From NCBI GenBank assembly GCA_943736015.1, contig OX031061.1, forward strand, positions 57,976,192 through 58,040,191: 64,000 bases of DNA. The letters are read 5' to 3'. The notes beneath the pieces were generated by a model, which saw nothing but the letters and a program-made list of their open reading frames with translations, was not told the DNA's origin and made no database searches. Positions 1 through 64,000 of this stretch are shown piece by piece. How positions within the stretch are numbered: position 1 is the first letter of the stretch; the number at the start of each line of letters is the position of its first letter. A program made the translations under genes and the position numbers. This DNA comes from Tridacna crocea (Eukaryota; Mollusca; Bivalvia; Cardiida; Cardiidae).

Positions 1-83
1 TTTGAGTCACATTTATTTTGTTGTCTGCAAATTATTTTAATTTGGACCAGTCTAAAATTTTGTCTTTGGTAAAGAGTTATACG
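1..83 (-). mobile_element. P1 element fragment, cut by the window edge
   Basis: Terminal part of a P1 copy (TTTTGTTGTCTGCAAAT... to ...GGTAAAGAGTTA). In this annotation + means the CAAAATTTTAGACTGG end comes first and - means the GGGATTGTGTGG-derived end comes first. Confidence 0.7.
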
Positions 84-86
84 CAT

Positions 87-90
<4 letters not shown>

Positions 91-126
<36 letters not shown>
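91..126. repeat. (TC)n microsatellite
   Basis: Uninterrupted TC dinucleotides, immediately after the P1 fragment. Confidence 0.95.
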
Positions 127-129
<3 letters not shown>

Positions 130-189
130 CTCATATACTTTTTTCAAGCCTACCCAAACCATTTACCATTTACATTTGCATATTTAGCT

Positions 190-600
190 ACCCACTCACT
201 TAATGAAAAAAATAACAGACTAATTCAATCACAAACAATGATAAACTCTTACACACTCACTTAATCATAAAACAACTAACTTAATCACCAATTTAGTAAT
301 TAATTGTTACTCCCTCACTTAATCATAAAATAGTTGACTAACTCGATCACAAATACAATAATTAACTCTTACACACTCACTTAATCATAAAATAACTAAC
401 TCAGTCACAAATACAATAATTAACTCTTACCCTCCCACTTAATCATAAAATAACTGCATGACTAAATCAACAATACAATAATTACCTCTTACCCCCTCAC
501 TTAATCATAAAATAACTGACTAACTCAATCACCAATACAATAATTAACTCTTACACACTTAATCATAAAATAATGGACTAACTTAATCCCTCTTTTACTT
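190..600. repeat. Tandem repeat, about 58-62 bp unit, about 7 copies
   Basis: Units built on AACTCTTACACACTCACTT followed by AATCATAAAATAACT and CAATAATT; restarts near 245, 305, 363, 421, 483 and 546. AT-rich and non-coding. Confidence 0.9.
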
Positions 601-654
601 GCTTTCTCGACCCTTAACTTAACCCTTTGACTATTAATCACGACCAACTGACCT

Positions 655-725
655 TTTGCAGATAGTGTAGATCTAGATCAGACTGCACAGAATGTCAGTC
701 TGATCTTGGATGTACACTATCTGAT
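655..725. repeat. Short palindromic dispersed repeat (GTAGATCAAGATCAGACTGCACAG type)
   Basis: The left part GTGTAGATC...ATCAGACTGCACAG is answered by GTCAGTCTGATC...TGTACACTATC. Related copies are near 23975-24010, 45265-45350 and 46395-46475. Confidence 0.6.
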
Positions 726-814
726 GAGAAACACCCCTCCCACTTAATGTACTTGTATACCTGTTTTCCAACCCCTTAAAATATCCTTTTACTTATAAAC
801 CTGACTCAATAGAG

Positions 815-1135
815 CATCATTGCAATCACCCACTCATACATTTGCCCTGTCACTCTCTCATTCACTCACTCACACTAGCCTACCCATCATTGCACCCACT
901 TTCACCAACCTACCCATCCATCCCTCTCACTCATCATCCACCCACCCACCCATCATTCCCCACCCACCACCCACCCACTCACTCCTTACCCACTCACTCA
1001 ACCACCAACCCACCCCCTCCCATTCACTCACATACCCACCCACCCACCCATTTTTTCACTCACTTGCCACTGACCCACTCTCCACACTCACTCACTCACT
1101 TACTCACTCACTCTGCTTTCTCTCTGGCATGCACA
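815..1135. repeat. CACT/CACC-rich low-complexity DNA
   Basis: Irregular CACTCA and CACCCA repeats. Long open frames here encode only His/Pro/Ser/Thr/Leu-rich translations and are not genes. Confidence 0.85.
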
Positions 1136-2190
1136 CAAAATTACTTGCTCGCTGTCTTGTTCACTCATACATTAACCCAGTGCAGTGTTGCATTATTCAC
1201 TACTCAGGAAGAAGAGGTTTGCTGCATTTGACCTTTTGGAGCCAAAGATGTAAATGTAAGTAGGATTCTGTATTATTGTATGGCGCACAGTGTGTAGAAA
1301 TCGGAATATATGAGGAAATGATATGGAGGAAAGACTTGAAATACTACCAGAAAAAGAAAGGACGGAAAGGAAATTTGCTATTTGACATCTATCTAAAGCA
1401 AGTCAGCTATACCATGGTTAAAATTGAATTTATGGGAGATCTTTATTGTATCTACTTTTCTGATTTCTATCATAGACATGAGGTGAGATTTTGACAACTA
1501 TCATTTAATGCAGGTACTGTGGAATGTGGAGCTAGGGACTGCCCATATTGCTGTTTGCAGAGCTTTTAGGGCGCAAATAACTATCACCAGAGCTGGGGTG
1601 AGTTTTCAGGTATGACATTCAAGGAGGGAAAAAGAGCAGCAATACTACGACCTTTTTCAAGATTGGCTGAAATGATAATGTCAAGAGCAATCCATTTCGG
1701 GAAGAACCTTTGAATTTATCTAGTTTGGATTTATAAAAAGAAGATCTTTTCAATTACTATTTTTGGAATCGCTTGAAAACTTGATATCAGTCCTAGATAA
1801 TGGATCAGGCATTTAACATTGTCGCCTGCAAATTTAGGAGACCATTTCATAAACTCTCCTACTGTAATTTGATTAAGAAATGGGAGTCTGATTGCAATGT
1901 TGGATTAACTTTGGATCAAGCATTTTTTATAATCAGATGGAACCAAGGAAGTTGCCAACAAGTAATAAGTGGAGTTCAGCAATATAATTTTCTAGGTCAT
2001 TTATTCTTCTTCATCTACCATTGACTGACCTTATGCAGCAGAAATTGTTCCCAAACTGTTTTAAATTGTGGAATATGCAAGCTCATTTTGGTATCCACAG
2101 CTAGAAAAATCCAGCTGCCATTGAGAAAACTGAATGAGAGAAACCAAAAGTCTTCCCTTTATCACCAACTTCCTAAATATTGAAAAGGGC
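1136..2190. other. Non-repetitive stretch with no supportable gene
   Basis: No domain or conserved motif in any frame. 1515-1595 is open with an acceptor-like start (TTAATGCAG) and a GTGAGT-like end, but I cannot connect it to anything. Confidence 0.5.
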
Positions 2191-2239
2191 TTTTGAAACC
2201 AGATACATATATGGATATATGCCACCCTAATACAAGTAT

Positions 2240-2665
2240 TCATTCCAACACCTCCTTTGTCTACTCAACAACTCGCTCTATCTTTCAGCTAGCCATCCTT
2301 TCACTCTCTTGCCTACCCACTCACTCAGCCACCAACTCAACCACCCTCACCCCCATTTATTCACTCACCTACCCACTCTTTCACCTACACATCCCCTCAC
2401 TCACTTGCCAACTCACCCACTCACCATCATAACCACTCACTCATTTGCCAACTCACCCACTCACCATCATAACCACTCACTCATCCATTCTTCTAACCAA
2501 CCCACCAACTCATCCAGCAATCAACTCACTTACCACTCATTAACCCTCATTCACCCAGCCAATCACTCACCCTTCCTTTCACTTAGCCATCCCCTCACAT
2601 ACTCAACAACTTTCCATCTCACTCACCCCTCCCTCATTCATTTTCATTCATTAATACACTCACAC
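2240..2665. repeat. CACT/CCAACTCA-rich low-complexity DNA
   Basis: Irregular TCACTCA, CCAACTCAC and CATAACCACTCA units, including an exact short direct repeat of ACTCACTCATTTGCCAACTC-type sequence around 2400-2480. Confidence 0.85.
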
Positions 2666-2666
2666 A

Positions 2667-3400
2667 CTAACTTAAACAAGAGGGCCATGATGGCCCTGAA
2701 ATCGCGCACCTGAATCTAATATTGACCAAACATGAACCATTCTCAATCTAGTTTCCCAGTGACCTAGTTTTTTATCCCACATCACCCATTATCAAACTCT
2801 TTTGAGACATCATCAAACCAACATTCTGTCCAAGTTTGAAGAGTATCAGGCCAAAAATGTGACCTCTAGAACGTACAAAGGGTTTTTCTAACATTTGACC
2901 TGATGACCTAGTTTTTGACCCGACATGACCCATTTTAAAACTCATCCAAGATATCATCAAGACAAACATCCTGACTAACTTGCAAGAGTTTTGGACTGAA
3001 AATGTGGCCTCTACAGTGTATACAAGGTTTTTCTAAGATTTGACCTAGAGACCCAGTTTTTGACCCAACATCACCCATTTTCATTTCAAACTCATCCGAG
3101 ATATCATCAAGGCAAACAATCTGACCAAGTTTCATGAGTATCGGACTGAAAATGTGGCCTCTAGAGCGTCCACAAGGCTATTCTAAGATTTGACCTAGTG
3201 ACCTAGTTTTTGACCCAACATAACCCATTTTCAAACATGTCCGAGATATTGAGACAAACATTCTGACCGAGTTTCATGAGTATGGGACTGAAAATGTGGC
3301 CTCTAGAGCGTCCACAAGGTAAAAAGTTGACAACGCACGACGGAGTCCGGACACAGCACTATCACAGTAGCTCACTCGGAGCACTTCGTGACCAGGTGAG
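2667..3400 (-). mobile_element. Hairpin-ended dispersed element with about 147-bp internal repeats
   Basis: It begins AACAAGAGGGCCATGATGGCCCTG (hairpin GGGCCATGATGGCCC) and contains about four copies of a 147-bp unit marked by GACCTAGTTTTTGACCC (near 2761, 2908, 3049, 3201). It ends with GCGCACGACGGAGTCCGGACAC-like sequence and ACTTCGTGACCAGGTGAGCT. Fragments in the other orientation lie at 23405-23706 and 54237-54620. Possibly a Helitron/Helentron-type non-autonomous element; unproven. Confidence 0.7.
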
Positions 3401-3651
3401 CTAAAAAACAACCCACTTCTCTCACTAGCTCCTTTTCACAGACTGAATTTCATTCATTCATTCATTCACAAACTAACTTCCTTCCTTTCACGTTTGCACC
3501 CCCTACCCCCCCCCCTCTTTTCCTCCCCCCCCCTCTTTTCCTCCCCCCCCTCTCTCTCTCTTTCTCTCGCTCTCTCACCTTTTTATTACTTTATCTGGTG
3601 GCTGTCTGTATGTCACTGGGTTCTGCTGTCTGTCTCCTTGTGTCTCTTTTT

Positions 3652-3880
3652 TACTCTTTACCAAACAACAAATTTCAGAATGATACAAAGTGAAAGCATC
3701 TGCAGACAACAAAAGTGACTGAAAAATTTAGATTCTTTTTTGGAAGGGTAGAAAACACTTGGGGAAAAGGAGAGAATGCTGGTTGTCAGCATTTTCTCAT
3801 TTTCCCACAATGTTTTCAAAAGGCTTCTACCTAAGAGACGTAAAGACCAGGGATTGTTTGGGAAAGGCTTACTCTGTTAA
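3652..3880 (+). mobile_element. P1 element inside the TCTG array
   Basis: Near-complete copy with an intact but imperfect central palindrome (AAAGGAGAGAATGCTGGTTG / TCAGCATTTTCTCATTTTCC). No TTAA on the left side; TTAA at 3877-3880. Confidence 0.85.
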
Positions 3881-4404
3881 TCCACGCATGCATTTACTCA
3901 TTCAAAAACCACCCTCCCATACCTCATCTTTTATCTTTCTCACTCTCTCAATAACCTTACTAAGAATCTAACAACCCAAAAACTAACCAGCTCTTTCACT
4001 CCCTTGCCTTTTTGTCTGTTTGTTTATCTCTCCCTGCCTGTTCCTCTCTATCACATTTACCTGTCCATTCACTTGTTTGCTCATCCACCTATGTCTGTGT
4101 TTCTGTTTGCCTTCCTGTCTGTATTTCTATTTGCTGTCTGTCTGTATTTCTGTTTGTCTGTCTGTATGTGTAGTATTTCTGTCTGTCGGTCTCCCTCTCT
4201 CTCTCTCTACTCTATCTGGTGGCTATCTGTATGTCACTGAGTTCTGCTGTCTGTCTCCTTGTTTCTCTTTTTTACTCACTATTACACCTCCAAAAGACTT
4301 AAAAACCCATGAACTTGCTCCCTTTCTTACTCCCTCGTCTGGCTGTCTGTTTGTGTGTCTCTCCTTCTCTGCCCCTCTCTCTCAATTTTACCCATACAGT
4401 CACT

Positions 4405-4485
4405 TTTTTCGATTTAAATTTTTGAACCGCCCATATTTTGTCATCTGCAAAAGCTTTTGATTTTGAACAGTCTAAGATTTGTTGT
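4405..4485 (-). mobile_element. P1 terminal fragment
   Basis: Only the TTTTGTCATCTGCAAAAGC...GTCTAAGATTTGTTG end survives. Confidence 0.55.
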
Positions 4486-4603
4486 TGAACACAGAATTTG
4501 CCCTTGTTTTAATTGGAAAGGTTACTGAAAAAGGAAGAAATTGCTGTTAACTTCTATTTGCTCCTTTCTCTCATAATCTTTTTTAATCTTCTTTATCAAA
4601 GTT

Positions 4604-5030
4604 ATTAACTCTATACCAAATGAAAAAAAAAAATAGATTGGTCCAAATTGAAAGCATTATTTTGCAGACTACAAAATAAATGTGACATAAAGATTGAAAT
4701 TTGTTTAATTCATTACCAAACAACAAAATTTTAGGTAAGTTCAAATCGAAAGCATTTGCAGAGGACAAAATAAAAGTGACTGAAAATTAAAAAGAAAATT
4801 TGTTTTGTGAAGGGTAGAAAACACTGTGGGAGAAGAAGAAAATGCTGGTAACCAACATTTTCTCCTTTTTTCACGATGTTTTCTGAAGGCTTCTTTCTCA
4901 GGGTTGTCAAAAGTAGGGATTGTGTGGTAATGGGTTAACGAATGGAAGAAAACATTGTGGAAAAGGGAGAAAATACTGGTTTCCAGCATTTTCTGCTTTT
5001 CCCACAATGTTTTCAATAGGTTTCTTTCTC
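4604..5030 (+). mobile_element. P1 element interrupted by a second P1 element
   Basis: The outer copy runs 4604-4704 (TTAACTCTATACCAAATG... to GAAATTTG) and resumes at 4939 with GAATGGAAGAAAACATTGTGG through its palindrome to about 5030. The inner copy occupies its middle. Confidence 0.8.
4705..4938 (+). mobile_element. P1 element nested in the 4604-5030 copy
   Basis: Complete copy with TTAA at 4705-4708 and 4935-4938. Removing it and one TTAA restores a continuous outer P1. Confidence 0.88.
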
Positions 5031-5928: not shown

Positions 5929-5963
<35 letters not shown>

Positions 5964-8900: not shown

Positions 8901-9109
8901 CATACTTACTCAATTGTTGTCTCTCTCTGTCTGTTTGTCTCTGTCTCCCCTTGTTATGCTTCTTACCATCTATCACTGTGTGTCCTTCTGTATCTCTGTC
9001 TCTCTTTCTTTCTTTGTCCCACTGTCTGTGTGTATGTCTGTCTGAATGTCTATCTGTTGTCTGTTTGCTTCTCTTTCTCCCCATGTCTCTTTGTCTCCCC
9101 CTCTCTTTT

Positions 9110-16329: not shown

Positions 16330-16560
16330 AATAAACTCCTTAACAAAGAAACAAATTAACAAATGCAAAGCCCAAGTACAAACTGCATCTGACGGGATTT
16401 GAAACCATGAAGGACAAAGATCCTCGTTTTTCAAGGTTAAAAGACCAAATACCATAACCACTGTGCCAAAGAGATATCTCCCTAATGCAGTGGTCAGGTA
16501 TTATATTTAAATCGGGACAAAGCTATGCATATAGGAGTGGTCTCCCATAATAGATAAAAC
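16330..16560 (-). mobile_element. tRNA-like composite dispersed repeat (SINE candidate)
   Basis: In reverse complement it reads GGGAGACCACTCC... then CTTTGGCACAGTGGTTATGG (A-box-like) and GGTTTCAAATCCCGTC (B-box-like). Further copies: 46836-47050 (-) and 56465-56960 (+, interrupted by a P1), plus a partial one near 57045-57190. It has an undisturbed TTAA at 16437-16440. Confidence 0.7.
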
Positions 16561-20321: not shown

Positions 20322-20552
20322 TTAACTCTTTACCAAATGACAAAATTTTAGACTGGTCCGAATTGAAAGCATTTGCAGACGACAAAATAAGAGTGACTTA
20401 AAAATTGAAATATGTTTTGGGAAGGGAAGAAAACATTGTGGGAAAAGGAGAAAATACTGGTTACCAGTGTTTTCTCCTTTTCCCTCAATGTTTTCAGAAG
20501 GCTTCTTTTTCAGGGTCGTTAAAAGTTGGGATTGTGTGGTAAAGTCAGTTAA
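20322..20552 (+). mobile_element. P1 element
   Basis: TTAA at 20322-20325; right end ...GTGTGGTAAAGTCAGTTAA carries a short extra CA. The central inverted repeat is complete. Confidence 0.88.
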
Positions 20553-20774: not shown

Positions 20775-21001
20775 TTAACGCTTCATAAAACAACAAAATT
20801 TTGGACTTGTCCAAATTAAAAGCACTTGCAGATGAAAATTTAAATGTGACTCAAATGAGGAAATTGGCCATTGGCAGGGTAGAAAACATAGTGGGAAAAG
20901 GATTCTCCTGGTTACCAGCATTTTCTCCTTTTCCAACAATGTTTTCATCAACCTTCTTCCTTAGGGTCATTAAAAATTGGGATTGTGTGGTAAAGGATTA
21001 A
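20775..21001 (+). mobile_element. P1 element, first of a three-element chain
   Basis: Bounded by TTAA at 20775-20778 and 20998-21001; the second TTAA is also the left limit of the next element. Confidence 0.85.
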
Positions 21002-21221
21002 TCCTTTACCCCATAATGCATTTCTATCTCTAATGGACCCTAAATAACAGCAAGGAGGAAGCCATTTCTTATGTGTATATGACACCTTTTGATAGTGTAG
21101 AAAACATTGTGGCAAAAGGTGAAATTGCTCTTCACAAGCAATTTCATCTTTTGCCACAATGTTTTCCAAAGACTCCTACAAGCAATGCATAGAAATGAGT
21201 ATCTATGGAGTAAAGGGTTAA
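20998..21221 (+). mobile_element. P2 element, middle of the chain
   Basis: TTAA-bounded. Ends are TCCTTTACCCCATAATGC and ATCTATGGAGTAAAGGG. The centre is a palindrome, GTGGCAAAAGGTGAAATTGC / GCAATTTCATCTTTTGCCAC. It shares GAAAACATTGTGG with P1 but is otherwise a different sequence. Confidence 0.85.
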
Positions 21222-31693: not shown

Positions 31694-31922
31694 TTAACTC
31701 ATTACCAAACTACAATATTTTAGGGTTGTCCAAATTGAAAGCATTTGCAAACGACAAAATAAAAGTGACTGAAAATTTGAAATTTGTTTTGTGAAGAGTA
31801 GAAAACATTGTGGGAAAAGGAGAAAATGCTGGTTACCAGCATTTTCTCCATTTCCCACAATGTTTTCTAAAGGCTTCTTTCTCAGGGGCGTCAAAAGTAG
31901 GGATTGTGTGGTAATGGGTTAA
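31694..31922 (+). mobile_element. P1 element
   Basis: TTAA at 31694-31697 and 31919-31922; the palindrome has one mismatch. Confidence 0.92.
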
Positions 31923-42633: not shown

Positions 42634-45600
42634 GTATGTGTACCTTTTTACTACTAACTCAACAAATTCTACTTTTGTTTTCGAGGTCTTGACCCTTTAC
42701 TCCATAGACACTCGTTTCTACGCATTGCGTGTATGAGCATTTGGAAAACATTGTGGCAAAAGTTGAAATTGCTTGTGACGAGAATTTTCATCTTCTGCCA
42801 CAATGTTTTCTATACTGTCAAAAGGTGTCATATAAACATAATAAATGATCATAGTTGAGTTTTGTATGGGGGATTTTGAACATCCAGGATTATTATACAT
42901 GTACATTCTAGAAAAGCTGTACAACCCTTTAACCCATTACCACACAGTCCCTACTTTTGACTCCCCTGAGAAAGGAGCCTTTGAAAAACATTGTGGGAAA
43001 AGGAGAAAATGCTGGTAACCAGCATTTTCTCCTGTTCCCATAGTGTTTTCTACCCTTCCCAGAATAAATTTCCATTTATTAGTCACCTTTATTTTGACTT
43101 CTGCAAATGCTTTCAATTTAGACCAGTCTAAAATTTTCTTGTGTGATAGATTTAACCCTTTACCACACAATCCCTACTTTTGACGCCCCTGAGAAAGAAG
43201 CCTTTTGAAAATACTGTGGGAAAAGGAGAAAATGCTGGTGACCAGCATTTTCTCCTTTTCCCACAGTGTTTTCTACCCTTCCCTGAACAAATTTCAATTT
43301 TTCATTCACCTTTATTTTGTCGTCTGCAAATGCTTTCAATTTGAACCAGTCTAAAATTTTGTCATTTGGTAATGGGTTAAGGGACATGTGTATCTTGCAA
43401 CAGTTTGCCGCTCTTGTTCTACAATGTTTTCAAAAGCAGTCTTTCCCAGGGTTGTGAAAACCCAGGATTGTTTGGTAAAGGGTTGAAATTTTATCAAAAG
43501 AATAAAAAAAAAGAATGATGATAATTACGACAAATTGTATCCATTTATAGTAGCCAACATTAACCCATTACCACATAATCCCTACTTTTGATGCCCCTCA
43601 GAAAGAAGCCTTTAGAAAACCAGCTTTTTCTCCTTTTCCCACAATGTTTTCTACCCTTCATAAAACAAATTATTTTCAGTCACTTTTATTTTGTCATCTG
43701 CAAATGCTTTGAATTTGGACAAACCTAAAATTTTGTCGTTTGGTAAAGAGTTAATACAATGCCAAAACCATAGAACATGAAATTTTATGCGGTGATGCCC
43801 TATTGTGTCCATTTTAGAGAATTAACACTTTACCATACAATGCAGACTTTCAAAGTACTATAATTGCGAATGTCTATATTGAAAGCAGTTTGCAAACAAC
43901 AAGGTCAATGTGGTTCAGATGATAAAATTTGTATTTGAAATGGCAGAAAACATTATGAGAAAGGAAGAAAATCCTGGTTATCAGCATATATATACATACC
44001 CCACAGGGAAGTGAAGTGGGGTATACTGGAATTGCCATGGCTGTCTATCTGCCCGTCCATCTGTCTGACCGTCCATGGAGACAAATTTGTCTGGAGCAAT
44101 ACTCCTACAGTTTTGCACGTCCTGAACTCAAATTTACACACAGGGTTCCTATATATGAAGTTGTGCATTTGCAATTTTTCATGACCCTGCTACAATTTTT
44201 AATGGAATTATTTCCCCTTAAACTTTTTTTAATTCTTACTTTTTTACTAAACCATTCTGCATTCTGTGACAAAGACCTGTTTTTGTGACAAGGAGCTAGT
44301 GGGGGGGGGGGGGGGGGGTATAATCACATTTAGTGATAGCTCTAGTCTTATTTTCCAACTATATTTTCAAAAGCCTTCTTCCTTGGAATCATTAAAATCC
44401 ATGAAATGTTTGTTAAAGGAAAATTGCATCATTTGAGCTGCACTAATGTGTTTTCTGCGCATAATTTTTACAACTGTTTTCAAAAGATTTCTCTGTCAGC
44501 GTATTTAACCAATTACCACGCAGCAAAAATTAAGACTTGTCCTCATTGAAAGAATTTGCCATTAACAAAACAAACGTAACTCAAAAATCGAAACTTGACT
44601 TTAGAAGAGTACAAAACATAGTGGGAAAAGGTGAAAATGCTGGCTTCCAGCATTTTCTCCTTTTCCTACAATGTTTTCAGAAGGGTTATTCCTCTGGGTC
44701 GTAGAAACCAGGGATTGTTTGGTACAGGGTTAAGGGTCATCAAAATGTAGAGTTTGTAGTTTGGTAAGGGATGGAAAGGGTATGAAATATAGTTAGAAAA
44801 GAAGAAATTGCTGATTCCTGGACTGATTTCTGGAATTCTCTCCTTTTCGGGCAGTGTTTTCAAAAGTTTTCTTTTACACGACATTGTTTGATATAAGGTC
44901 CATGTACCCTGAGGCTTGAACCTGAACCTAAAAATGTCTACCTACTTGTTATACCCACGCAAAATGTATATTTTTGGGGGTATCCTGGAATCAGCCTGTC
45001 TGTCTGTGTGTCCATCTGTGTGTGTCTGCCTGTTTCTGTCAAAGTGCAGGTGGGGGTATTAAGTCACATTCAGTGACAGCTCTAGTTTTTCTTTCAGCAA
45101 TTCACAAATGAAGACCATCTTGAAGTTCACATGCGGAAACATGACATGTCACTGGCGCTCAACTTGTCTGGAACTGGCATGCTGTCACCATCGTTTGGTG
45201 CTTTCACAGGTAGCCAATATGGTATCTTAACCCAGTCCCTTAAAGCCCCTTTTGACTATTAAAGTTGCCGTTGTGCCAGTGCAGACCAAGACCAGACTGC
45301 ATAATCTGTGCAGTCTGATCTTCAATCTACACTGTCCACTTTGCCAGGACATTCTGGCTATTTGTTACTGTTCAAAAGTTGAATCCATGTAAGAAAGATG
45401 TTTATGTCATTGTTATGCTCCTTTTCCAACTTGGAAATAAGTTGTCTAAGAACAAAACAATTATTAGTTTGGAGTTTTGTGATTCATCTTTACAATTGTG
45501 TCGGAAAGGCTTTGCTAACCACAATAATTGATAGATTAACAGGTACATCAATGGAGTTTGGGTTGCATTGTTTCATAAATTCAGTTTTTAATTGATGATG

Positions 45601-48600
45601 CTCTGCATGAGATAGAAACAAGAAATTTTTTGGAGGTCCTGCTCCCTTATTTCTGGGTACCTGGCACAGTTATATTCTTTAACCCTTTCCCAAACAATCC
45701 ATGATTTTCAGGACCCTAAGAAAGAAGCCTTCTGAAAACATTATGGGAAAAGGAGAAAGAGCTGGTAACCAGCATTTACTCCTTTTCCCACAATGTTTTC
45801 TTCCCTTCCCATAACAAATTTCATTTCTTTAGTCACATTAATTTTGTCGTATGGAAATGCTTCCAGTTTGGACTGGTCTCCAATTTTGTCGTTTGGTAAA
45901 GGGTCAACTCTTTACCAAATGACAAAATTATAGACTGGTCCAAATTGAAAGCATTTGAAGACTACAAAATAAGTGTGACATAAAAATTGAAATACATTTT
46001 GAGAAGGATAGAAAAGATTGTGGGAAAAGGAGAAAATACTGGTTACCAGCATTTTCTCCTTTTCCCACAGTATTTTCAAAAGGCTTCTTCCTCAGGGTTG
46101 TTAGAAGTCGGGATTGTGTGGTAAAGGATTGAAACCTGGACACTAACAATAATGTAATGATTTTTTTGCTATGTTTCTTTTGTATATCTTGTAGATCAAA
46201 CCCCAACACCAACTAAATTCTTGAAGAACCTGGAGGAAATGGGCCTGTTTCAAGAACTCACCAAAAACCCTTTTGATGATTCTTTCAAGAAAGCAATGGA
46301 TGATGGTTTGGAGCAGAATGCTATGGTACAGGTTTGTACTGAGAAAGTTCACATAGTTTTTCGCCCATATAGTACTGGAACCAGCTGTAGATTGTTTTTG
46401 TGGACAGCGTAGATCAAGATCAGACTGCACAGGACAGTCAGTCTTATCTTCAGTATACAATGTTTGCTAGTTCATTATATATCCTGGCCTAGAAAGCAGT
46501 GAAATGACAATAATATATCAGATGTGTCTGAGCTCCATGTAAAATTATAGAACCCGTCGTTCTTTCTTTTGTTCTTGAATGGAATTGGTTACTTATTAAC
46601 CCATTACCAGATGACAAATTTTAGCTCTTTCCAAATTGTAAGCATTTGCAGCCGTGAATTTCAGTGTGGCTCAAATGGTGCATTTGTTTATTGATTAGGT
46701 AGAAAACATTGTGGGAAAAGGAGAAAATGCTGGTTACCAGCATTTTCTCCTTTTCCCGCAATGTTTTCAAAAGGCTTCTTTTCCAGGGGCATCAAAAGTA
46801 GGGATTGAGTGGTAATGGGTTAAACACTTCTTATGAACAAAGTCCGTAACAAAGAAACAAATGCATAGCTGAAATACTAACAGCATCTGGCGGGATTTTA
46901 ACCCATGGTGGATAAGATCCTCAATTTTTGAGGTTTAAAATACCATTACCATAACCACTGAGCAAAAGAAATATCTCCCTAATGCAGTTGTCAGGTATTG
47001 TATTTAAAATAGGACAAAGTCATGCATGAAGGAGAGGTCTCCCGTAACACCCTTCACAGCACAAAGCTGACTTCAGATGACCTTGGGAAAGAAGTCTATT
47101 GAACATGTTGTGGGAAAGAGAGAATGTGCTGGTAACCAGCGTTTACTCCTTTTTTCACAATGTTTTCTATCCTATAAAAGAAAGGTTCCACCATTTGAGC
47201 CACATTGAAATTTTCATTCGCAAATGCTTGAATTCGGACATGGCTAAAATTTTGTCATTTGGTAAAGGGTTAAGTTTTTAAGTACCCAGTATCCCTTTTA
47301 TCGACCAGCTGATATAGCTCAGTAGGTAGAGCGTAGGACTCTTGAACACAATGTTTCGGGTAACTACAGGTTGTGGGTTCAAATCCTCAGCTGACCAACT
47401 AAAATTACTAATAGTCTTTCGGATGAGACATTAAACCAAGGTCCCAGCGTGATGGTGCTATACGCTGGGCACATTAAAGAACCAGGCGAAGCTCTCAGTA
47501 GTTTCAACCTGTATCCTTGCACTATCCCCATAACAGCTAATTGTTTTCTGGCGGCGTCGCTCAGACGGGCAACCAGTAGCGACAATAAATAAACAAAAAA
47601 AAAACAACCAACCATCGAGTACTCAAAAGGATACATACACTTTTGTCCAAATGTTTTCAAGTGTAAGTCATCATTGAGAAGGATAGGGTGAGAGCTATAC
47701 ATTGATAAACTAAATCCCAGTTAAGAGCTTATTAACCCCACACCAAATGACAAAATTTTAGACCGGTCCAAATGGAAAGCACTTGCAGAAGACAAAATAA
47801 ACATAACTCAGAAATTGAAATTTGATTCCAGCAGGGTAGAAAAAAATTTTGGGAAAAAGAGAAAATGCTGGTTACCAGCATTTTCTCCTTTTCCCACGAT
47901 GTTTTCAATAGGCTGTTTTCTCAGGGTCATTAAAAGTCAGGATTGTGTGGTAAAGAGTAAAATAGAAATTGGAAATAACTTTAATATGATCGAAAATAGT
48001 TTGTTAATTAAGTTAGTTGTGAGATATTCATGTACATGTTAATTTTCTTTATCTGACAGTGGTGTCTGTAACATTAACATCTGCAGTCAAACCAAATAAT
48101 TCTTTTTTTGCTTCAGGAATGATCAGCTATGATTAACAAGTATCATTAATTTTGAACTGTTAACTGGAAGTAGGATTGTTTCTTAACTCTTTACCACACA
48201 ATCCCGACTTTTAACGACCCCTGGGAAAGAAGCCTTTTGAAAACATTGTGGGAAAAGGAGAAAATGCTGCTCCTTTTTCCACAATGTTTTCTACCCTTCT
48301 CAAACCATTTCAATTTTTCAGTCACATTTATTTTGATTGTTGGCAAATGCTTTCAATTTGGACCAGTCTAATTTTTTCTTGTGTGGTAAAGAGTTAAATG
48401 TCTGATTAGCAAGGTCGATAAGCCTGTAAACCTCACAGACATTCAATTGGAATACATAAACAGAGTGGCAGGTGTTGATGTCAGTGAAAAAACCTCAAAT
48501 TGCAAACTGAAAAGCATTGCAAAATAAGTATCAATTATGGTAGATTAAAGGCTAGTTAGATGGTAAGGTGTTGCACCAAGCTGAACCCTTCACATATCCT

Positions 48601-51600
48601 TTTTCGTATTCATCAATCTCAAAAATTCAAATATAATATGATTTTGAATCAGAAAAGCTGGAAATATTTAATCCTTTACTCCACAGACACTCATTTCTAT
48701 GCATTGCTTGTAGGAGCCTTTCGAAAACATTGTGGCAAAAGGTGAAATTGCTCGTGATGAGCAATTTCATCTTTTGTCACGATGTTTTCTATGCTATCAA
48801 AAGGTGTCATATACACATAAGAAACAGGTTCATCCTTGCTGTTATTTATGGTCAATTAAAGATACCATAGAAATGCCTTATGGGGTAAAGGGTTAAAAAA
48901 AGAATAGAGATGAAAAATCAAATTCTTAATTCCCCCTCAATTACTTGTTTCCATCCCTAATTTCTACCATTTCAGATCAGCCTTCCTATAACAGACACAC
49001 CTGAGTTGGACACACCCCAGCCCCAGTTACCCAGAATTGTGATAGGGGACGAGGACTCTGCTTTAAAAGGAACTGATAAAGCGAAGGATACCCTTTCTTC
49101 TATTGTACCTAAAAAACGGAAAAAATTCTTGAGACAGGTATTGTAGAACATTGTAACCTTTTACTGCACAATCACACATTTTAAAATGCTGAGAGAGAAG
49201 GGTTTTAAAAATACATGGAGAAAAGGAGAAGGTCGCTTATCTATAAAATGGTTAATAGTTAGAATTGTCAAATTATCTGTTAGTCAAAATACAAACTATG
49301 ACCTTCAAAGAACAGAGAACATTGGGTATAAAGGAGAAAATGCTTAATAGGGTCAGTAATTACTTGAAGTACTAACTTTAGGAACCTTATTCCAGATGGG
49401 TTTGAAAAGCTGGTTGTTTTTAATTCCTTACCAAAAGACGAACAAAATTTGGTCTGGATTAAATTGAAAAGTTATTTGGAAAAGAAAATTGTAATGAGTA
49501 TACATGCAATGAAATGAGCTGATTATTGAATATCTAAAGAGATATATAGCATCTGACATAAGAGGGCTTTTGAGATAGGATTTTATTAAACGAATCAAGG
49601 GAAATGTTATTAAGCAAGCCTTTGGCGAGCTTAATAACATTTCCCCTGATGAGTTTGATAAAATCTTATCTCAAATGCCCACAAATGTCAGATTCTTTTT
49701 ATCACATAATGATATGTCAGGAAATATAGATCAGATGATGCAAAAACATCCATAAATGCACCCGCTGTATTTTCTGTGAGACCCATTCACTTGTATGAAA
49801 TGCGTGGAAAATGACATCAAAAATGACATCACACAAGTGTGATATCAAACGTGAGTAAGATATGAAAATTTGTAATGGGTATATTACACTGAAAACAAGG
49901 GAGGTTATGTGATAAATTAATATTCTATCAAATGTACCCTGATTTTATGACACTGATGGGAAGAATTTTGAGTGTTTTGAGGGAGAAGATATAAATGCTG
50001 TTTACCAGCATTTCTTCCTAAACTCACAATGTATCTTAAACTTCAGAAGAGAAATGCAACCATTTTAGATTGTGAACAGCTGCTAGTATTTGTTGTCTAT
50101 GAATACTTTTTCTTTTGGAGAAGTCTAATGAGTATTACTTAGTAAAGAGTTCCTATGTGGATCCCTGAAATACGCCCCTTATCTTTCTGTCTGAGTTCTT
50201 AACCTTTTATTCCATAAGGAATTTCTATGGTATCTCTAATTGAGCCTAAATAACAGCAAGGATGAAGCCGTTTCTTATGTGCATATGACACTTTTTGATA
50301 GTGTAGAAAACATTGTGGGAAAGGGTGAAATTGCTCGTCCCGAGCAATTTCACCTTTTGCCACAATGTTTTCCAAAGGCTCCTACAAGCAATGCGTATTA
50401 ATGAGTATCTATGGAGTAAAGGGTTAAAATTGGTCGTTACTAGCATTGTTTTGGTTCTTTTCTTCCAATTACTACTGTCATATGCATTTCCCCAGCAGCA
50501 TTAGGGGTAATAAAGTCCTTTCTTATTCATGACAGCATAGCATGCCAACCTCCACAACATCTGAGGATGAGTCGGAGTCTGTGATTGGATCTTCCTCCTC
50601 TGTTGATGTTGGCCCCTCCTCCTTGGAGACAGAGGGAGGGGCTACAGGTGATGTTGTGCTGGAAGCTCCACCCTCCTCTGCACAGGAACAAGTAACCTCC
50701 ACACAGACTGTTTCAGCAAACCCCACAGAAGCTCTAAATATCCCAAGTACAGTTCCTGTTGTTGACACAAGTGCTATGGCAGAGTAAGTACATAGAATTT
50801 TTTTTTTTTAATACCCTTTTATAACCAGCATTTTCTCCTTTTCCCATAATATTTACTACCCTTCCAACAATAATTTCAAATTCTCATCCACATTACAAAT
50901 GCTTTGAATTTGGGCAAATGTAAAATTTTGTTGTTTGGTAAAGATAAATGTAAAAGATATTTTTAAGTGCAGTAAACTGTATATCCAGGTTCTACTGTAG
51001 TCTAAAACACGCATTTTATAAGCTCAGCTGTTTTTGGAAAAAAAAAAATCAAGGTATTGTTATGACTCTGGCATTGTTCTTGTCTACTCCATCGTATGAA
51101 AACTTTTGACATTTTAGAATATTTAACTTTTTACCACACAAGCCCGACTTTTAAAGGTGGGTATTTAGAATTTTCACATCACACAAAATTAAAAAATATA
51201 TATGTCACTGGTATTTATATGAAAAAACAATACAAATCATCCGTAATTTAATTGAAAAAAAAAGTTTTTTTGGTGGTATTCCCTTAACAGGCTACGTAGC
51301 CTCTTAAGCTATTTTTAGATTTCCCGCCAAAAACAAAAAAGAGCATTGTGGGAATGTTCAGTGACTTGCACATGACTAATGACTATTAAATTCCGTAAAG
51401 TAACAAATAAGTAATTATTTTCCATAATGTCTAGAACTTTGGATGCTATGTTTGAAGCTTCGTCTGTATATTTCTGGTATGTAAATGAGTGAGTTGCTAA
51501 TGTAAAAATAGACAGTATTTCCCTTCAGTGTCGACCTGGGCTGTAGTAAATCTCTAATTTATCTAGCTGTCGGATGGTTTTTGACTGTTGGGGTTTTATG

Positions 51601-54600: not shown

Positions 54601-57600
54601 AGAGGCCATATTTTATGAATCCATAATCATGCAGTAACTTGCTTAGTAAGGAGCTTCTTGCAAAAGGGGGCTTAACTCATAACCAAACGACAATGTTGTA
54701 GGCTTGGCCAAATCGAACGCATTTGCAGACGACAAAATAAAAGTGGCTGAAAACTTGAAATTTGTTTTGTGAGAGTAGAAAACACTGTGGGAAAAGGAGA
54801 AAATGCTGGTTACCAGCATTTTCTCCTTTTCCCACAATGTTTTCTAAAGGCTTCCTTCTCGGTGTCGTCAAAAGTATGGATTGTGTGGTAACGGGTTAAT
54901 ACATCTCGGTGATGCATGATACCTTGCTAGCTATCACATGACTATGGATGCATAAAATGCATTTAATCTAAAAATTTAATGGATTGGAAGGTAGATGGAT
55001 CCTTTGACATGCAGAAAATTTACAAGTAGCAAGAAGCATGGGCTCGTGTTTGTCTGTGCAAACGGAGCAGACTGACAAGGGTCGGTACTTTTTGTAGATG
55101 CATGAAACCATATCTCCAAAGGGGATTTCTCATATATTTGTTGCTTTTTGTTTGTTCAGAAATGAAGGCAATCCTCTTTTCTATTTTTTTTTTTTTTTTT
55201 TTAACCCATTACCACACAATCCCTACTTAAGACTACCCTGAGAGAGAACCCTTTAGAAAACATTTTCTCCTTTTCCCACATGTTTTCTACCATTCACAAA
55301 AGAAAAATTCAAATTTTCAGTCACGTTTATTTTGTTGTCTGCAAATGCTTTCGATAGTCCTAAAATTTTGTCGTTTGGTAAAGAGTGAACTCTTAACCAA
55401 ATACCAAACAACAAAATTTTAGACTGTTCCAAATTGAAAGCACTTGCAGACGACAAAATAAACGTAAAAAAATAAACGTAAAATAAAAAAAAATGAAAAT
55501 TGTTTTGGGAAAGGTAGAAAATACTTTTGGAGAAGAAAATGCTGGTTACCAGCATTTTCTCCTTTTCCCACAGTTTTTTTAAATGAGTTTATCTTGGGGT
55601 TGTAAAAACCAGGGATTGTTTGGTAAAGCGCTAATTGGATATTTAAAAGAAGAAACCTATAGGTTGTATATGTTAAATTTTGCAGTACTCATACACCAGA
55701 CTCAATGGAATCGGAGTCCAAAAGGAAGAAGTTTTTGGAAAGAAACAGGTAAGAATTTCAAGCCTTTCTGTTGATTCTAACTACATAAATTCTTTATGTT
55801 GTGATCAGCCTTTAGATGGGGAATATGTAGGCGAAATTTGTTTTTTACAGTAAGACAGACCTCCGGATAGAGGGAGTGATTTTGATTTCAAAATTGAAAA
55901 TATTAATTATTCTCCACTAAACTGTATGTTATGGGCACTCATTAGATTCGTCTCATTGAGACAATTCTAATGAGTAATCATAACATAGGGTTTGGAAGAG
56001 AAATAATGGATTAAAATTACAATCACTCCCTCTTATCTGAGCTCTGGTAAGAGATCGAAATTTATTTCATCGAGTAATCATCATCGTAATATTTTCAGGA
56101 GTGCCAAAGCCACAAGTAAAAATATTACGGAATCTGATTAAGTTAATGAGATGAAATAAATGTTGATCTTTCACTTTAACCCACTACCACACAATCCCTA
56201 CTTTTGACGCCCCTGAGAAAGAAGCCTTTTGAAAACACTGTAGGAAAAGGAGAAAATGCTGGTAACCAGCATTTTCTCCTTTTCCCACAGTGTTTTCTAC
56301 CCTTCCCAGAACAAATTTCAATTTTTCAGTCACCCTTGTTTTGTCGTCTGCAAATGCTCTCAATTTGGACGAGTCTAAAATTTTCTCGAGTGGTAAAGAG
56401 TTAAACTCAGTTTATGTGTTAAGAATCATCAAACATTTTATAATAACTTTGTCATTACTAAGATTTTACATAGAACTTGGACTAGTTATTGAAGACCACT
56501 CCTTCATGCATCACATTGTCTCTATTGAAGTACAATACCTGACTACTGCACCAGAGAGATATCTCTTTGGCTCGGTGGTTATGGTATTGGTCTTTTAACC
56601 CATTAGCACACAATCCCTACTTTTGACGCCCCTGAGAAAGAAGCCTTTTGAAAACATTGTGGGAAAAGGAGAAAATGCTGGTAACCAGCATTTTCTCCAT
56701 TTCCCACAATGTTTTCTACCCTTCACAAAACAAATTCCAAATTTTCAATCACTTTTATTTTGTCGTCTGCAAATGCTTTTAATTTGGACCAGTCTAAAAT
56801 ATTGCCGTTTGGTAATGGGTTAATCCTCAAAAACGAGGTTATTTGTCTCTTCAAGGGTTTGAATCCCGCCATATGTGGTTTGTATTTGAGCTATGCATTT
56901 AATTGTTTCTATGTTATGGACTTTGTCCATAAGATGGAGGCTTGTCCGGGATTGGCCATTGAGCCATTAATCCCATTTGTTGTCTGAAAACAGACTTTCT
57001 GCCTAATAAGGCTTTGAGTCATCAATATTTGACGACTTTAAGAGGGGGTGTGTTACGGAGACCACTTCTTCATGCATGGCTTTGTCCCGATTTAAATACA
57101 ATACCTGAATACTGCATCGAAGAGATGATGGTGTTTGAGCTATGCATTTTTTTTATTTTTATATGTTACGGACTTTGTTCGTAAGATTATTAAGTATCAA
57201 AAGAGTTTGGTAACTATCAAATTATGTTTTGCTTAGTTATACAACTTTTTGATACGCAGTTTTCACTAAGAATCAACCTACTTCTAAAAGAAACTGTAGC
57301 TGGGCATCAGCACCAGTAATCGGTACTCATGTTCAATTTTATGCACTTTTTCAGAGCGGCAGCAGCAAGATGTCGGCAGAAACGGAAATACTGGATTTCA
57401 AACTTGGAAAAGAAAGCGGATGATTTAACCAGTCAAAACACCAAACTTTGTGTATGACAACTTAATCTCATAGCTGTTATGTATTGAAATTTGGATTTTA
57501 ACTCTTTACCACATAATATCGACTTTTAACGAACCAGAGGAAGAAGCCTTTTGAAAACAATTGTGGGAAAAGGAGAAAATGCTGGTAACCAGCATTTTCT

Positions 57601-61233: not shown

Positions 61234-61423
61234 GTAACCAGAAGTGATGGAATTCTAACTCCATTATTTCTCTTCCAAACCCTATGTTGTGGGTACTCAT
61301 TAGAATCATCTTGATGAGACAATTCTAATGAGTATCCACAACATAGGGTTTAGCGAAGAATAATTAATGTTTTCCATAATGAAATCAAAATCACTCCCTC
61401 CATCTGGAGCACTGCAAAAATGA
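61234..61423. mobile_element. Palindromic MITE, GAGGGAGTGATTTTGAT family, copy 3
   Basis: In the 3' flank or 3' UTR of the ATF2-like gene. The left end is diverged; the right end TCACTCCCTCCATCTGGAGC is clear. Confidence 0.78.
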
Positions 61424-61560: not shown

Positions 61561-61596
61561 TATTTAATCTGACTCCTTTATCAAATGACTTTGTGT

Positions 61597-61772
61597 TTAA
61601 CTCATTACCAAACAACAAATTCTTGGCTTGTCCAAATTATAAGCATTTGCAGACGAAAAAATAAAAGTGGCTGAAAACTTGAAATTTGTTTTGGAAAGGG
61701 AAGAAAACATTGTTTTCTAAAGACTTCTTTCTCAGGGTCGTGAAAAGTAGGGATTGTATGGTTATGGATTAA
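61597..61772 (+). mobile_element. P1 element with the whole palindrome deleted
   Basis: TTAA at both limits; GAAAACATTG is followed directly by TTTTCTAAAGAC, so both arms have been removed cleanly. Confidence 0.88.
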
Positions 61773-61835
61773 AAGACCCTGTAGAAGATTGCCTTTGAAA
61801 CATTGTGGAAAATGCTGGTAGCTGTCATTCTCTCT

Positions 61836-62208
61836 TTAACTCTTTACCACACAATCCTGACTTTAATCGACCCTGAGAACATTATGGAAAAAGGAGAAAA
61901 TGCTGGTAACCAGCATTTTATCCTTTTCCCACAATATTTTCTACCCTATCAAAGTCAGAAACCACCATTTTAACAAGATTTAATCCTTTACAACACAATC
62001 CCGACTCTTAACGGCCCTGAAAAAGAAGGCTTTTGAAAACAATGCGGAGAAAGGAGAAAATGCTGGTAAACAGCATTTTCCCCTTTTCCCACAATGTTTT
62101 CTACCCTATGGTAGACAAAAATCATGAATTTAGCAACATTTATATTTTCGTCTGCAAAAGCTTTCAATTTGGTTCAAGCCATAGCTTTGTTGTTTGGTAA
62201 AGGGTTAA
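61836..62208 (-). mobile_element. Two chained P1 elements
   Basis: 61836-61983 (right end truncated) and 61980-62208 (complete), joined at TTAA 61980-61983. Confidence 0.82.
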
Positions 62209-62381
62209 TTTGTCATCTACAGATGCTCTGAATTTGGTCCAGTCCAAAATTTTGTCTTTGTGTTGGAAATAATTCTTATATTTTTTACCCTTTCAAATAT
62301 AAATCACAGCAAATACTTGTTTTTTTGTGTTTCTAATATGAGTTAGTTTGTGTTGTCTTGTTCACCTTACAGTTCTGAGTG

Positions 62382-62610
62382 TTAACTCTTTACCACACGA
62401 TAATATTTTAGGCTGGTCCAAATTGAAAGCATTTGCAGACGACAAAATAAAAGTGACTGAAAATTTGAAATTTGTTTTGTGAAGGGTAGAAAACATTGTG
62501 GGAAAAGGAGAAAATGCTGGTAACTAGCATTTTCTCCTTTTCCCACAATATTTTCTAAAGGCTTCTTTCTCAGGGGCGTCAAAAGTAGGGATTGTGTGGT
62601 AATGGGTTAA
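62382..62610 (+). mobile_element. P1 element
   Basis: TTAA at 62382-62385 and 62607-62610; arms nearly perfect. Confidence 0.92.
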
Positions 62611-62760
62611 AAAACCCAACAGAAAAGGCTTTTTGAAAACATCATGGGAAAAGGAGAAAATGCTGGTTACCAGCATTTTCTCCTTTTTCCATAATGTTTT
62701 TGAAAGGCTTCTTTTTAAGGGTTATTAAAAGTTTGCATTGTGCATAAAACGGATAATTAA
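62607..62760. mobile_element. P1-like element with two similar outer ends
   Basis: Complete hairpin (GGAAAAGGAGAAAATGCTGG), but both flanks derive from the AGGCTTTTTG / AAGGCTTCTT side, as if half the element had been copied over the other. Confidence 0.6.
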
Positions 62761-62943
62761 GACGGTATTTCTGAGTAACAAGGTTGTAATAACTATATAC
62801 ACTATTGTTTAACTGTAGTTCTTGGCTTCAGCCCCTATTCGTTTGAAATATTATTACATGATGATTACGTGATGTCAGTTATTAAGTCCTGCTTGATTTA
62901 ATGGTGTAGGAATTGTAATCTGGCTTGATCCCTGCTAATAGCT

Positions 62944-63199
62944 TTAACCCACAATCTTGCGTTTTAACGGCCTTGAGGAAAAAACTTTTTGAAAACATCG
63001 TGGAAGAAGAAAATGCTGGTAACCAGCATTTTCTCCTCTTTTCACTATGTTTTCTAACCTATTCCCTTTTTCCACTATGTTTTCTGTTTTCTAACCTATC
63101 ACATACTCAAACAGTCATTTGAGCTGCATTTAATTTGTCGTCTGCAAATGCTTTCAATTTGGTAGGCTTTAGAATTTTTGTTTGTTGGTTAAAAGTTAA
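62944..63199 (-). mobile_element. P1 element with an internal duplication
   Basis: TTAA-bounded; CCACTATGTTTTCT...AACCTAT occurs twice in the right half. Confidence 0.8.
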
Positions 63200-63207
63200 T
63201 GGTATGT

Positions 63208-63421
63208 CTTCATCAAATGACAAATTCTGTACTTGTCAAAATTGAAAGTATTTGTAAATGACAAAGTCAATCTCATTCAGGAAATGAAGGTTGTTTTGGA
63301 AGGGTGGAAGAGATTGAGGGAAAATGAGAAAATGCTGGCAACCAGCATGTCTTCTTTGACTTCAGTATTTTTTAAAAGTCTCCTCTGGTGTAAAACTCAA
63401 AAAAGTTTGGTAAAAGTTTAG
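63208..63421 (+). mobile_element. Diverged P1 element
   Basis: CATCAAATGACAAATTCTGT...CTTGTCAAAATTG at the left; worn hairpin (GGAACCAGCATG) and ...AGTTTGGTAAAAG at the right. Confidence 0.65.
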
Positions 63422-63874
63422 GTTATTGTCTCTTGTGCTGGAGTGCCCTTTGGAAAGACACTTAGCTATGAATGAACTTGTGACCCTTGATAAAATGGGA
63501 CCTTTATGGGTCTGTCACAAAGATGAAGCCAAATTACATCTTGAACCATTGCTGTGATATGACTGTGTGATCATTTTGAAAGCAGTATAATTATCATTTG
63601 TTTGTTTGATCTGCAATAGCTGTTTTTGTCCAACAAGGTAAACAAAGAACATCTTAAAAATGTGTGTGTTTATATATCAAAAACTTTAAAAAATCTTCCT
63701 GTTCCTAACGGTGAGAGCTAGAGCTGCAGTCATGTACGTCAGCTTTGCATGTGAAAAATAACTGACTCATTTTGGTGCCTTGCCTATTTTCACTATGAAG
63801 TTTTATTCCAATGCAGATTTCTTACAGTTGAACAACTGCCAACGTCAATAACATATATAGCACATAAAATATGT

Positions 63875-64000
63875 TTAATTCATTACCATACGGCGAAATT
63901 TTAGGTTTGTCCAAAATGGAAAGCATTTGCAGATGACAAAATAAAAGTGACTAAAAACTTGAAATTTGTTTCGCGCAGGGTAGAATATGTTGTGGGAAAA
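63875..64000 (+). mobile_element. P1 element cut by the window end
   Basis: TTAATTCATTACCATACGGC start; sequence stops in the left hairpin arm. Confidence 0.85.

What the first reader, a model, noticed from the sequence alone, without database searches (positions are those of the whole stretch)
1..64000. P1: a very abundant TTAA-flanked element with a 33-nt-arm central palindrome
About 55 full or partial copies of one roughly 225-bp element lie in 64 kb. Ends are CCC(A/T)TTACCA... and ...TGGTAA(T/A)GGG inside TTAA, as expected of piggyBac-type mobilised MITEs. Unlike typical MITEs, the inverted repeat that dominates is in the middle: GAAAACATTGTGGGAAAAGG continuing to CTGGT, loop A or T, then its complement. 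The density implies a very large genome-wide copy number. I know of no named description of it, but cannot search.
Basis: partly seen in the sequence, partly recalled or inferred. Interest (0 to 1): 0.85.

Follow-up and report, generated by a model that had tools for sequence, protein, structure and literature searches.

The report
Million-copy mobile DNA with central palindrome
A 229-base mobile DNA element makes up roughly a sixth of this animal's genome, and the mirror-image sequence in its middle stayed symmetrical in the copies that spread, which suggests that the palindrome helps the element multiply.

Summary
A profile search finds 85 non-overlapping copies (38 full-length) of a 229-bp element covering 23% of the window. 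Twenty 10-kb samples of the 1.05-Gb host genome scale to about 1.09 million copies (SE 0.19 million), 17.5% of the genome. Empty sites carry a single TTAA: this is a non-autonomous TTAA cut-and-paste element.

The central 67-bp palindrome (33+1+33) is the unusual part. Rare, post-insertion variants are at least as frequent there as in the flanks, but variants shared by many copies are rarest there: it was conserved in source copies. Its arms covary: exact genome-wide counts at one position are 26,428 and 8,369 for the paired states, 1,312 and 1,571 for the one-sided ones. Family B has near-random flanks but the same length, ends and palindrome, with all 8 arm differences in 4 complementary pairs. 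A rare TA-flanked family (C) carries a related palindrome.

piggyBac transposases are present (118 matches), but no ends I resolved match P1. Closest published case: coral CMITEs. Repbase and Dfam were not available.

The parts
1..64000 (.). Whole population: 85 non-overlapping P1 copies, 38 full-length, 14,669 bp
   Evidence: nhmmer with an 18-copy profile, E<=1e-3
56595..56823 (-). Full P1 copy inside an unrelated repeat; gives the clean empty-site comparison
56650..56716 (-). Its central 67-bp palindrome; RNA fold of the whole element -86.8 kcal/mol, z -8.3
16369..16511 (-). Uninterrupted (empty-site) copy of the repeat that hosts 56595-56823
   Evidence: 82% identity across the junction, one TTAA
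46866..47008 (-). Second uninterrupted copy of that repeat
   Evidence: 80% identity, one TTAA
4705..4938 (+). Full P1 copy nested in an older P1 (4605-4704 plus 4940-5030) at a TTAA
61980..62208 (-). Full P1 copy nested in an older P1 (61836-61981 plus 62206-62258)
62382..62610 (+). Full P1 copy
   Evidence: E 1.2e-75
43152..43380 (-). Full P1 copy; paired change at arm position 8
42929..43148 (-). Near-full P1 copy in tandem with 43152-43380
56176..56404 (-). Full P1 copy; same paired change at arm position 8
   Evidence: E 6.5e-76
31694..31922 (+). Full P1 copy
   Evidence: E 4.2e-75
54672..54899 (+). Full P1 copy
   Evidence: E 1.2e-71
20322..20544 (+). Full P1 copy
   Evidence: E 5.5e-72
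46596..46823 (+). Full P1 copy
   Evidence: E 1.5e-65
20998..21221 (+). Family B copy: same palindrome place, different flanks
48668..48896 (-). Family B copy
50199..50427 (+). Family B copy
42690..42847 (-). Family B copy, partial
43560..43754 (-). P1 copy with a deletion at and beside the palindrome centre (others at 17852, 48183, 51888, 55201)

Best explanation
P1 is a non-autonomous cut-and-paste DNA element (MITE) that inserts at TTAA and duplicates it. It was most likely moved in trans by a piggyBac-type transposase that recognises the outer ~13 bp (CYC(A/T)TTACC...GGTAA(A/T)GGG). The central 67-bp palindrome is a second cis-acting site that source copies needed in order to multiply: its sequence and its symmetry were kept in the lineages that spread, and it decays freely once a copy has landed. 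Shown here: TTAA insertion with empty sites, copy number by sampling, conservation of the palindrome in source lineages only, paired changes in the arms, absence of coding constraint. Inferred: the transposase class. Inferred with less confidence: that the palindrome acts as a dyad site for a dimeric protein (transposase C-terminal domains or a host factor), as in piggyBac and piggyBat whose paired C-terminal domains bind palindromes, rather than as an extruded hairpin or a transcribed RNA.
For: TTAA at both ends, and single-TTAA empty sites in an unrelated repeat and in two nested P1 hosts. In 141 near-full copies of 292, common variants per site are 0.15 and 0.24 in the arms, 0.38 in the outer ends and 0.62-0.84 elsewhere, while rare variants are no fewer in the arms; 43 window copies agree. 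Paired changes: 51 against 19.8 +- 4.6 in 500 arm shuffles; both arms changed in register 87 times against 40-56 when slid by 1-3. Genome-wide exact 67-mer counts 26,428 / 1,312 / 1,571 / 8,369, odds ratio 107. Family B keeps 12/13 at each end and 58/67 in the palindrome with all 8 arm differences in 4 complementary pairs, 8/12 and 9/12 just beside it, but 39/112 in the rest. Codon positions vary alike. piggyBac transposases with TTAA+CCC ends are in the genome. piggyBac and piggyBat C-terminal domains bind palindromes (PMC11707139, passages seen).
Against: No transposase with P1's ends was found (16 of 118 matches read). The left end is mostly CTC, not CCC. 67 bp is far longer than the 19-bp palindromic sequences described for piggyBac. 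Copies are a median 14% from consensus and the closest pair among 124 differs by 4.4%, so present activity is not shown. The profile was built from copies chosen for having both arms, so copies that lost the palindrome may be under-counted, although flank-only fragments are found too. Variants shared by descent are not independent, so the Fisher values are guides only. In the window alone and without family B the pairing signal was weak: 21 against 13.6 expected. Arm copying during transposition could also keep the arms alike.
Confidence: 0.7

Rival explanations
1. The arms are kept alike by a copying process, not by selection: during transposition or replication one arm templates the other (hairpin repair or template switching), so every new copy starts symmetrical.
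For: One-sided states are rare among otherwise perfect 67-mers and paired changes are common. Internal deletions pile up at and beside the palindrome centre (7-9 per site at 136-165 against 0-3.4 elsewhere), as expected if the arms pair in vivo.
Against: Copying explains symmetry but not why the arm sequence itself varies less than the flanks in source lineages. After insertion the arms decay independently: 558 one-sided cells in 141 copies.
Confidence: 0.2
2. The palindrome acts as a transcribed long hairpin (small-RNA source or structured RNA) whose product favours the element.
For: One element folds far better than its shuffles (z -8.3), and paired changes are the classical sign of a conserved stem.
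Against: No Rfam family reaches its gathering score in the window. A DNA dyad leaves the same pattern. No expression data could be examined.
Confidence: 0.1
3. The open frame through the element (VENIVGKGENAGYQHFLLFPQCF in its middle) is a conserved small protein.
For: The consensus is open from near the left end to near the right end. I recall similar spurious proteins in other animal proteomes; no call supports this.
Against: Codon positions 1, 2, 3 vary alike (0.170, 0.149, 0.167). Paired changes at arm positions 8, 26 and 31 alter amino acids (my reading). No Pfam match at E<=1 and no PDB match at E<=10.
Confidence: 0.03
4. The transposase is not piggyBac but another TTAA enzyme (Kolobok, Sola2/3).
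For: TTAA is shared by these groups (for Kolobok, PMC9587614, passages seen; Sola recalled). The left end is mostly CTC.
Against: Kolobok ends are 5'-RR and YY-3' (PMC9587614); P1 starts with C and ends with G. CCCTT and CCCAT starts are reported for piggyBac (PMC10813416, passages seen).
Confidence: 0.12

Closest known systems
CMITE families of Acropora corals (Wang et al. 2010, PMC2872659; abstract, sections 10 and 15, and passages seen)
   Same: TTAA target duplication, CC[C/T]T ends, several families whose internal region is more conserved than their inverted repeats, tandem arrays, suspected mobilisation by piggyBac-like transposons, and the authors' own suggestion that the internal region matters for transposition.
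   Different: CMITEs are about 100 bp with a 75-bp internal region and an estimated 1,600 copies in A. millepora; the word stem 'palindrom' does not occur in the text. Their internal sequence is printed in a figure only, so homology with P1 could not be tested. P1 is 229 bp and about a million copies, and its symmetry and paired changes are shown here.
piggyBac and piggyBat transposon ends (PMC11707139, passages seen)
   Same: Palindromes near the ends bound by paired C-terminal domains of the transposase; TTAA target (piggyBac).
   Different: Their palindromes are short and near the ends; P1 has one 67-bp palindrome in the middle.
T2-MITE / Xmix of Xenopus (PMC6004289, passages seen)
   Same: Abundant, long-lived TTAA MITEs.
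   Different: Kolobok-type ends (AGGRR); 'palindrom' does not occur in that text.
Unclassified MITEs of bivalve genomes (PMC10294476, passages seen)
   Different: MITEs were not classified further there and 'palindrom' does not occur in the text; that P1's host is a bivalve is my recall, not a result.
PALTTAA palindromic repeats of C. elegans (Repbase names, recalled, no call)
   Same: Palindromic repeats at TTAA.
   Different: As recalled, the whole element is the palindrome; in P1 it is a central third.

Membership tests
MITE (non-autonomous cut-and-paste DNA element) | Short, uniform length, no coding capacity | tested here: met
   229-bp consensus; codon positions vary alike; no Pfam match
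MITE (non-autonomous cut-and-paste DNA element) | Terminal inverted repeats | tested here: met
   Outer ~13 bp mirror each other apart mainly from position 6; the next ~20 bp are imperfect (consensus; read by eye)
MITE (non-autonomous cut-and-paste DNA element) | Target-site duplication with empty sites | tested here: met
   Single TTAA at two paralogous empty copies and at two nested P1 hosts
piggyBac superfamily, non-autonomous member | TTAA target | tested here: met
piggyBac superfamily, non-autonomous member | CC[C/T] termini | tested here: inconclusive
   Right end mostly CCC (read inward); left end CTC in most copies (T 22, C 14, G 1)
piggyBac superfamily, non-autonomous member | Ends shared with an autonomous piggyBac element | tested here: inconclusive
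   16 of 118 transposase matches read; 5 end types resolved, none matching; the other 102 were not read
Kolobok superfamily | 5'-RR and YY-3' termini | tested here: not met
   P1 begins with C and ends with G; definition from PMC9587614
CMITE | Conserved internal region shared between families with different inverted repeats | tested here: inconclusive
   Families A and B share the palindrome and the outermost 13 bp but little of the rest: like CMITEs in kind, except that the outermost ends are conserved too
CMITE | Homology of the internal sequence | not testable with these tools
   The CMITE sequence is printed only in a figure

The most novel reading that the evidence does not exclude
The palindrome is a transferable amplification module: one 67-bp dyad, kept symmetrical by selection in source copies, used by at least three element families, two at TTAA (A, B) and one at TA with Tc1/mariner-like ends (C; the type is recalled), so that it works with more than one transposase, perhaps through a host protein. 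P1 reached about a million copies by combining short TTAA ends with this module.
Probability: 0.25. Interest if true: 0.85.

Novelty: new variant of a known kind. Interest (0 to 1): 0.62.

Why it matters
Why a few MITEs explode to enormous numbers while their relatives stay rare is an open question. Here one family reaches about a million copies in a 1.05-Gb genome, and the record in its own copies points to a specific internal sequence that source copies had to keep. Because copies decay freely after landing, hundreds of thousands of them form a natural experiment on which bases mattered for spreading. That makes the role of an internal palindrome directly testable with a transposition assay.

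Tried and rejected
Exact search for a 31-place palindrome core in viral and prokaryote contigs: 0 hits. Search of viral contigs with the translated frame: 11 stretches matched a pattern, none confirmed. Blastn against phages and plasmids: none. Text search for fragments of the frame and of the DNA: 0 papers. Other text searches: 11 (0 papers), 26 (1), 31 (108, 20 listed), 32 (0), 55 (18, 15 listed), 59 (28, 12 listed), 104 (1), 105 (3, all listed); in what I saw of these only the CMITE paper was close. Rfam and tRNA scans of the window: 0. Search for the palindrome in other contexts: in 338 kb (window plus L009-L049) 273 palindrome loci were 238 A, 13 B, 8 C and 14 unclassified, which I take for remnants, so it is not free-floating there; all strong C matches lie in loci read for their transposase or fetched because of C. 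The idea of post-insertion arm repair was rejected: one-sided changes dominate in landed copies. Rows dropped: one search used 57 of 85 copies, searches used 43 (near-full, family B left out), one search used 141 of 292, one search used 124; the sets were not filtered for family B.
Full report
WHAT IS THERE. The window lies in an unnamed 1,048,827,098-bp genome (C6:57976192-58040191). I take the host for a mollusc, probably a bivalve, from its repeats and genes; that is recall, not a call. A profile of 18 hand-picked copies (from 31 oriented ones) finds 151 raw matches in the window, many of them the palindrome read on its other strand. After removal of overlaps 85 copies remain: 38 are full-length (profile start at or before 15, end at or after 215), 44 lie on + and 41 on -. 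The matches cover 14,669 bp, 23% of the window. The consensus is 229 bp including both TTAA.

ANATOMY. TTAA; outer end CYC(A/T)TTACCA; a left body; a 67-bp palindrome at 108-174 (33 + 1 + 33); a short right body; outer end TGGTAA(A/T)GGG; TTAA. The palindrome sits 103 bp from the left TTAA and 51 bp from the right one (read from the consensus). The inverted repeats extend imperfectly to about 35 bp by eye. Folded as RNA one copy gives -86.8 kcal/mol, z -8.3.

INSERTION. Twenty of 38 full copies have exact TTAA on both sides. Copy 56595-56823 interrupts an unrelated repeat whose uninterrupted copies at 16369-16511 and 46866-47008 carry one TTAA; copies 4705-4938 and 61980-62208 interrupt older P1 copies, again with one TTAA left after the flanks are joined. 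Seventeen adjacent pairs of copies or fragments lie within 6 bp of each other, several at a shared TTAA but not all. In the genome samples 46 of 92 full copies have TTAA at both ends, with up to 2 bases of shift allowed.

COPY NUMBER. The exact 20-mer occurs 144,012 + 142,978 times; reversed control 0. Twenty 10-kb samples at set positions on 11 contigs gave 207 copies (0 to 31 per sample, two samples with none), 92 full, coverage 17.5% (SE 3.3). This scales to 1.09 million copies (SE 0.19 million), 0.48 million full, 183 Mb; the reversed sample gave 0 hits. The same sample predicts 267,451 exact 20-mers against 286,990 counted, so it is not far off.

CONSERVATION IN SOURCE COPIES. In 43 near-full window copies, singletons are 64 at 66 palindrome sites and 114 at 154 flank sites, but variants shared by 4 or more copies are 14 and 106. 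In 141 near-full copies of 292, variants shared by 11 or more copies per site are 0.15 and 0.24 in the arms, 0.38 in the outer ends and 0.62-0.84 elsewhere, whereas variants seen once or twice are 1.48 and 1.85 per site in the arms and 0.63-1.31 elsewhere. So landed copies mutate freely while the lineages that produced copies kept the palindrome, more strictly even than the outer ends. Variants are not independent, so the Fisher values (1.9e-6 and 2.6e-12) are only guides. The profile was made from copies with both arms, which favours such copies, though flank-only fragments are also found.

PAIRED CHANGES. In the 141 copies both arms carry the same complementary change 51 times; shuffled arms give 19.8 +- 4.6, maximum 34 of 500 shuffles. 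Both arms are changed at the same pair 87 times, against 40 to 56 when one arm is slid by 1 to 3. One-sided changes are 558, as expected of decay after landing. Without family B the window alone was weak: 21 against 13.6. The genome-wide test is decisive for one position: exact 67-mers with T centre number 26,428 (T/A in both arms), 8,369 (C/G in both), 1,312 (left only) and 1,571 (right only); odds ratio 107, where independence would give about 78 for the double state. From the transition rates I estimate that decay alone would give about 1,100 of each one-sided state, so no large asymmetric source lineage is needed. Only this position was counted genome-wide.

FAMILY B. Its consensus is also 229 bp with the palindrome in the same place (three copies used). 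A and B agree at 12 of 13 positions at each end and 58 of 67 in the palindrome (the centre base and 8 arm positions differ). All 8 arm differences form 4 complementary pairs (121/161, 128/154, 133/149, 138/144). The 12 bp on either side of the palindrome agree at 8 and 9 positions. The remaining stretches agree at 39 of 112 (10/27 + 19/55 + 10/30); for the left part 29 of 82 against 22.6 in shuffles. In window plus samples the B profile beats A in 15 hits, 11 of them full or nearly so.

FAMILY C. In one locus with a piggyBac frame (L040) I found a third palindrome. It belongs to a unit of about 285-310 bp, in L047 and L048 flanked by TA with ends CAGTAC(T/G)GAAACT, which I recall as Tc1/mariner-like. 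L047 and L048 have the same flanks and so count as one insertion; no empty site was found for C. Its better arm matches A at 26 of 33 positions; the best of 298,062 other 33-mers outside P1 matches 23. The unit recurs near the starts of four contigs, in copies of the L040 3' region and dispersed (whose counts are lower bounds). It is rare: a 16-mer of its arm occurs 19 times in the genome. Common origin of the A and C palindromes is likely but rests on few copies.

INSTABILITY. Of 148 spanning copies, 27 have 34 internal deletions of 8 bp or more; they concentrate at 136-165 (7-9 per site against 0-3.4 elsewhere), at and just right of the palindrome centre; 9 midpoints fall in the central 20 bp against 3.7 expected. 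This fits slippage or extrusion of the arms.

NOT CODING. One frame is open through nearly the whole consensus, but codon positions vary alike: 0.170, 0.149, 0.167.

TRANSPOSASE. PF13843 gives 118 matches in the genome, many with open frames (a lower bound by the tool's own note). I read 16 loci. Eight have TTAA+CCC ends in five types: CCCTTTATATAC, CCC(T/A)(T/A)GTCATGC-like, CCCATTTATGCC, CCCTTTCAG(T/C)GC, CCCTCTAGA. None has P1's ends, and in seven of the eight no P1 match lies inside; the eighth is L040 with the C unit. Of the other eight loci, L035, L039 and L042 align with resolved types, and the ends of L030, L032, L034, L038 and L041 stayed unresolved. So the class of enzyme is inferred from TTAA and the end bases, not shown.

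MECHANISM. The simplest reading is a two-part requirement: outer ends for cleavage at TTAA, and a central dyad for assembly or capture. In piggyBac two C-terminal domains bind a palindrome, and piggyBat binds an unrelated one (PMC11707139, passages). P1 differs in having a single long palindrome in the middle. Whether the dyad is read as duplex DNA, as an extruded hairpin or as RNA is open.

KNOWN OR NEW. The coral CMITEs share TTAA, CC[C/T]T ends and an internal region more conserved than the inverted repeats; their authors suggested a role in transposition and could not explain its origin (PMC2872659). P1 is best filed as a new variant of that kind. A survey of bivalve transposons already notes that unclassified MITEs take up much of those genomes (PMC10294476, passages). 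What is added: the palindrome, the paired changes, the split between source and landed copies, and the copy number. That no description exists is not claimed: Repbase and Dfam were not available, and the text searches are.

I recounted against the calls: B hits full or nearly so are 11 (not 10); the empty copies carry a true TTAA; the left C unit of L040 keeps one palindrome arm; the conserved strips beside the palindrome, the slid control, the single-locus basis of C's TA flanks and the selection of profile copies were added.

Noticed in passing
window 11968-15695: Satellite-like array of a 79-bp unit, about 47 copies, 86% matches, next to about 11 kb rich in simple and short tandem repeats (1-11900).
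   Followed up: no
window 34551-35243 (+): Open frame with a YqaJ recombinase domain (PF09588, E 1e-11); recalled as a companion gene of some DNA transposons.
   Followed up: partly
window 52188-52772 and 60633-61130 (+): Open frames of low complexity; the first recalls ATF2/CREB5-type factors (LLQLPNGQTIPVQVPAS), by recall only; no Pfam match for either.
   Followed up: no
window 60511-60585, 61275-61353, 58280-58352: Other, unrelated palindromic repeats; 33 palindromes with arms of 18 or more lie outside P1 in window plus samples, 129 inside.
   Followed up: partly
window 56535-56594 and 56824-56883: The repeat interrupted by P1 copy 56595-56823 reads like a tRNA-derived SINE (GGGTTTGAATCCCGCC), by recall only.
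   Followed up: no
L029 926-3690 and L044 948-3711 (oriented): Complete piggyBac elements 99.86% identical over 2,765 bp: this host has had recent piggyBac activity or duplication.
   Followed up: partly
L040 (oriented 838-1090 and 2959-3269): A piggyBac frame lies between two inverted C units; the left one keeps only one palindrome arm.
   Followed up: partly
G000 C1:17-39 kb, C2:15-19 kb, C3:43-48 kb, C8:7.7-11.8 kb: C units recur near contig starts, the main matches all on the - strand; L045 shows them spaced by about 520 bp.
   Followed up: partly
genome samples L009-L028: P1 density is very uneven: 0 to 57.5% of a 10-kb sample. The cause is unknown.
   Followed up: no
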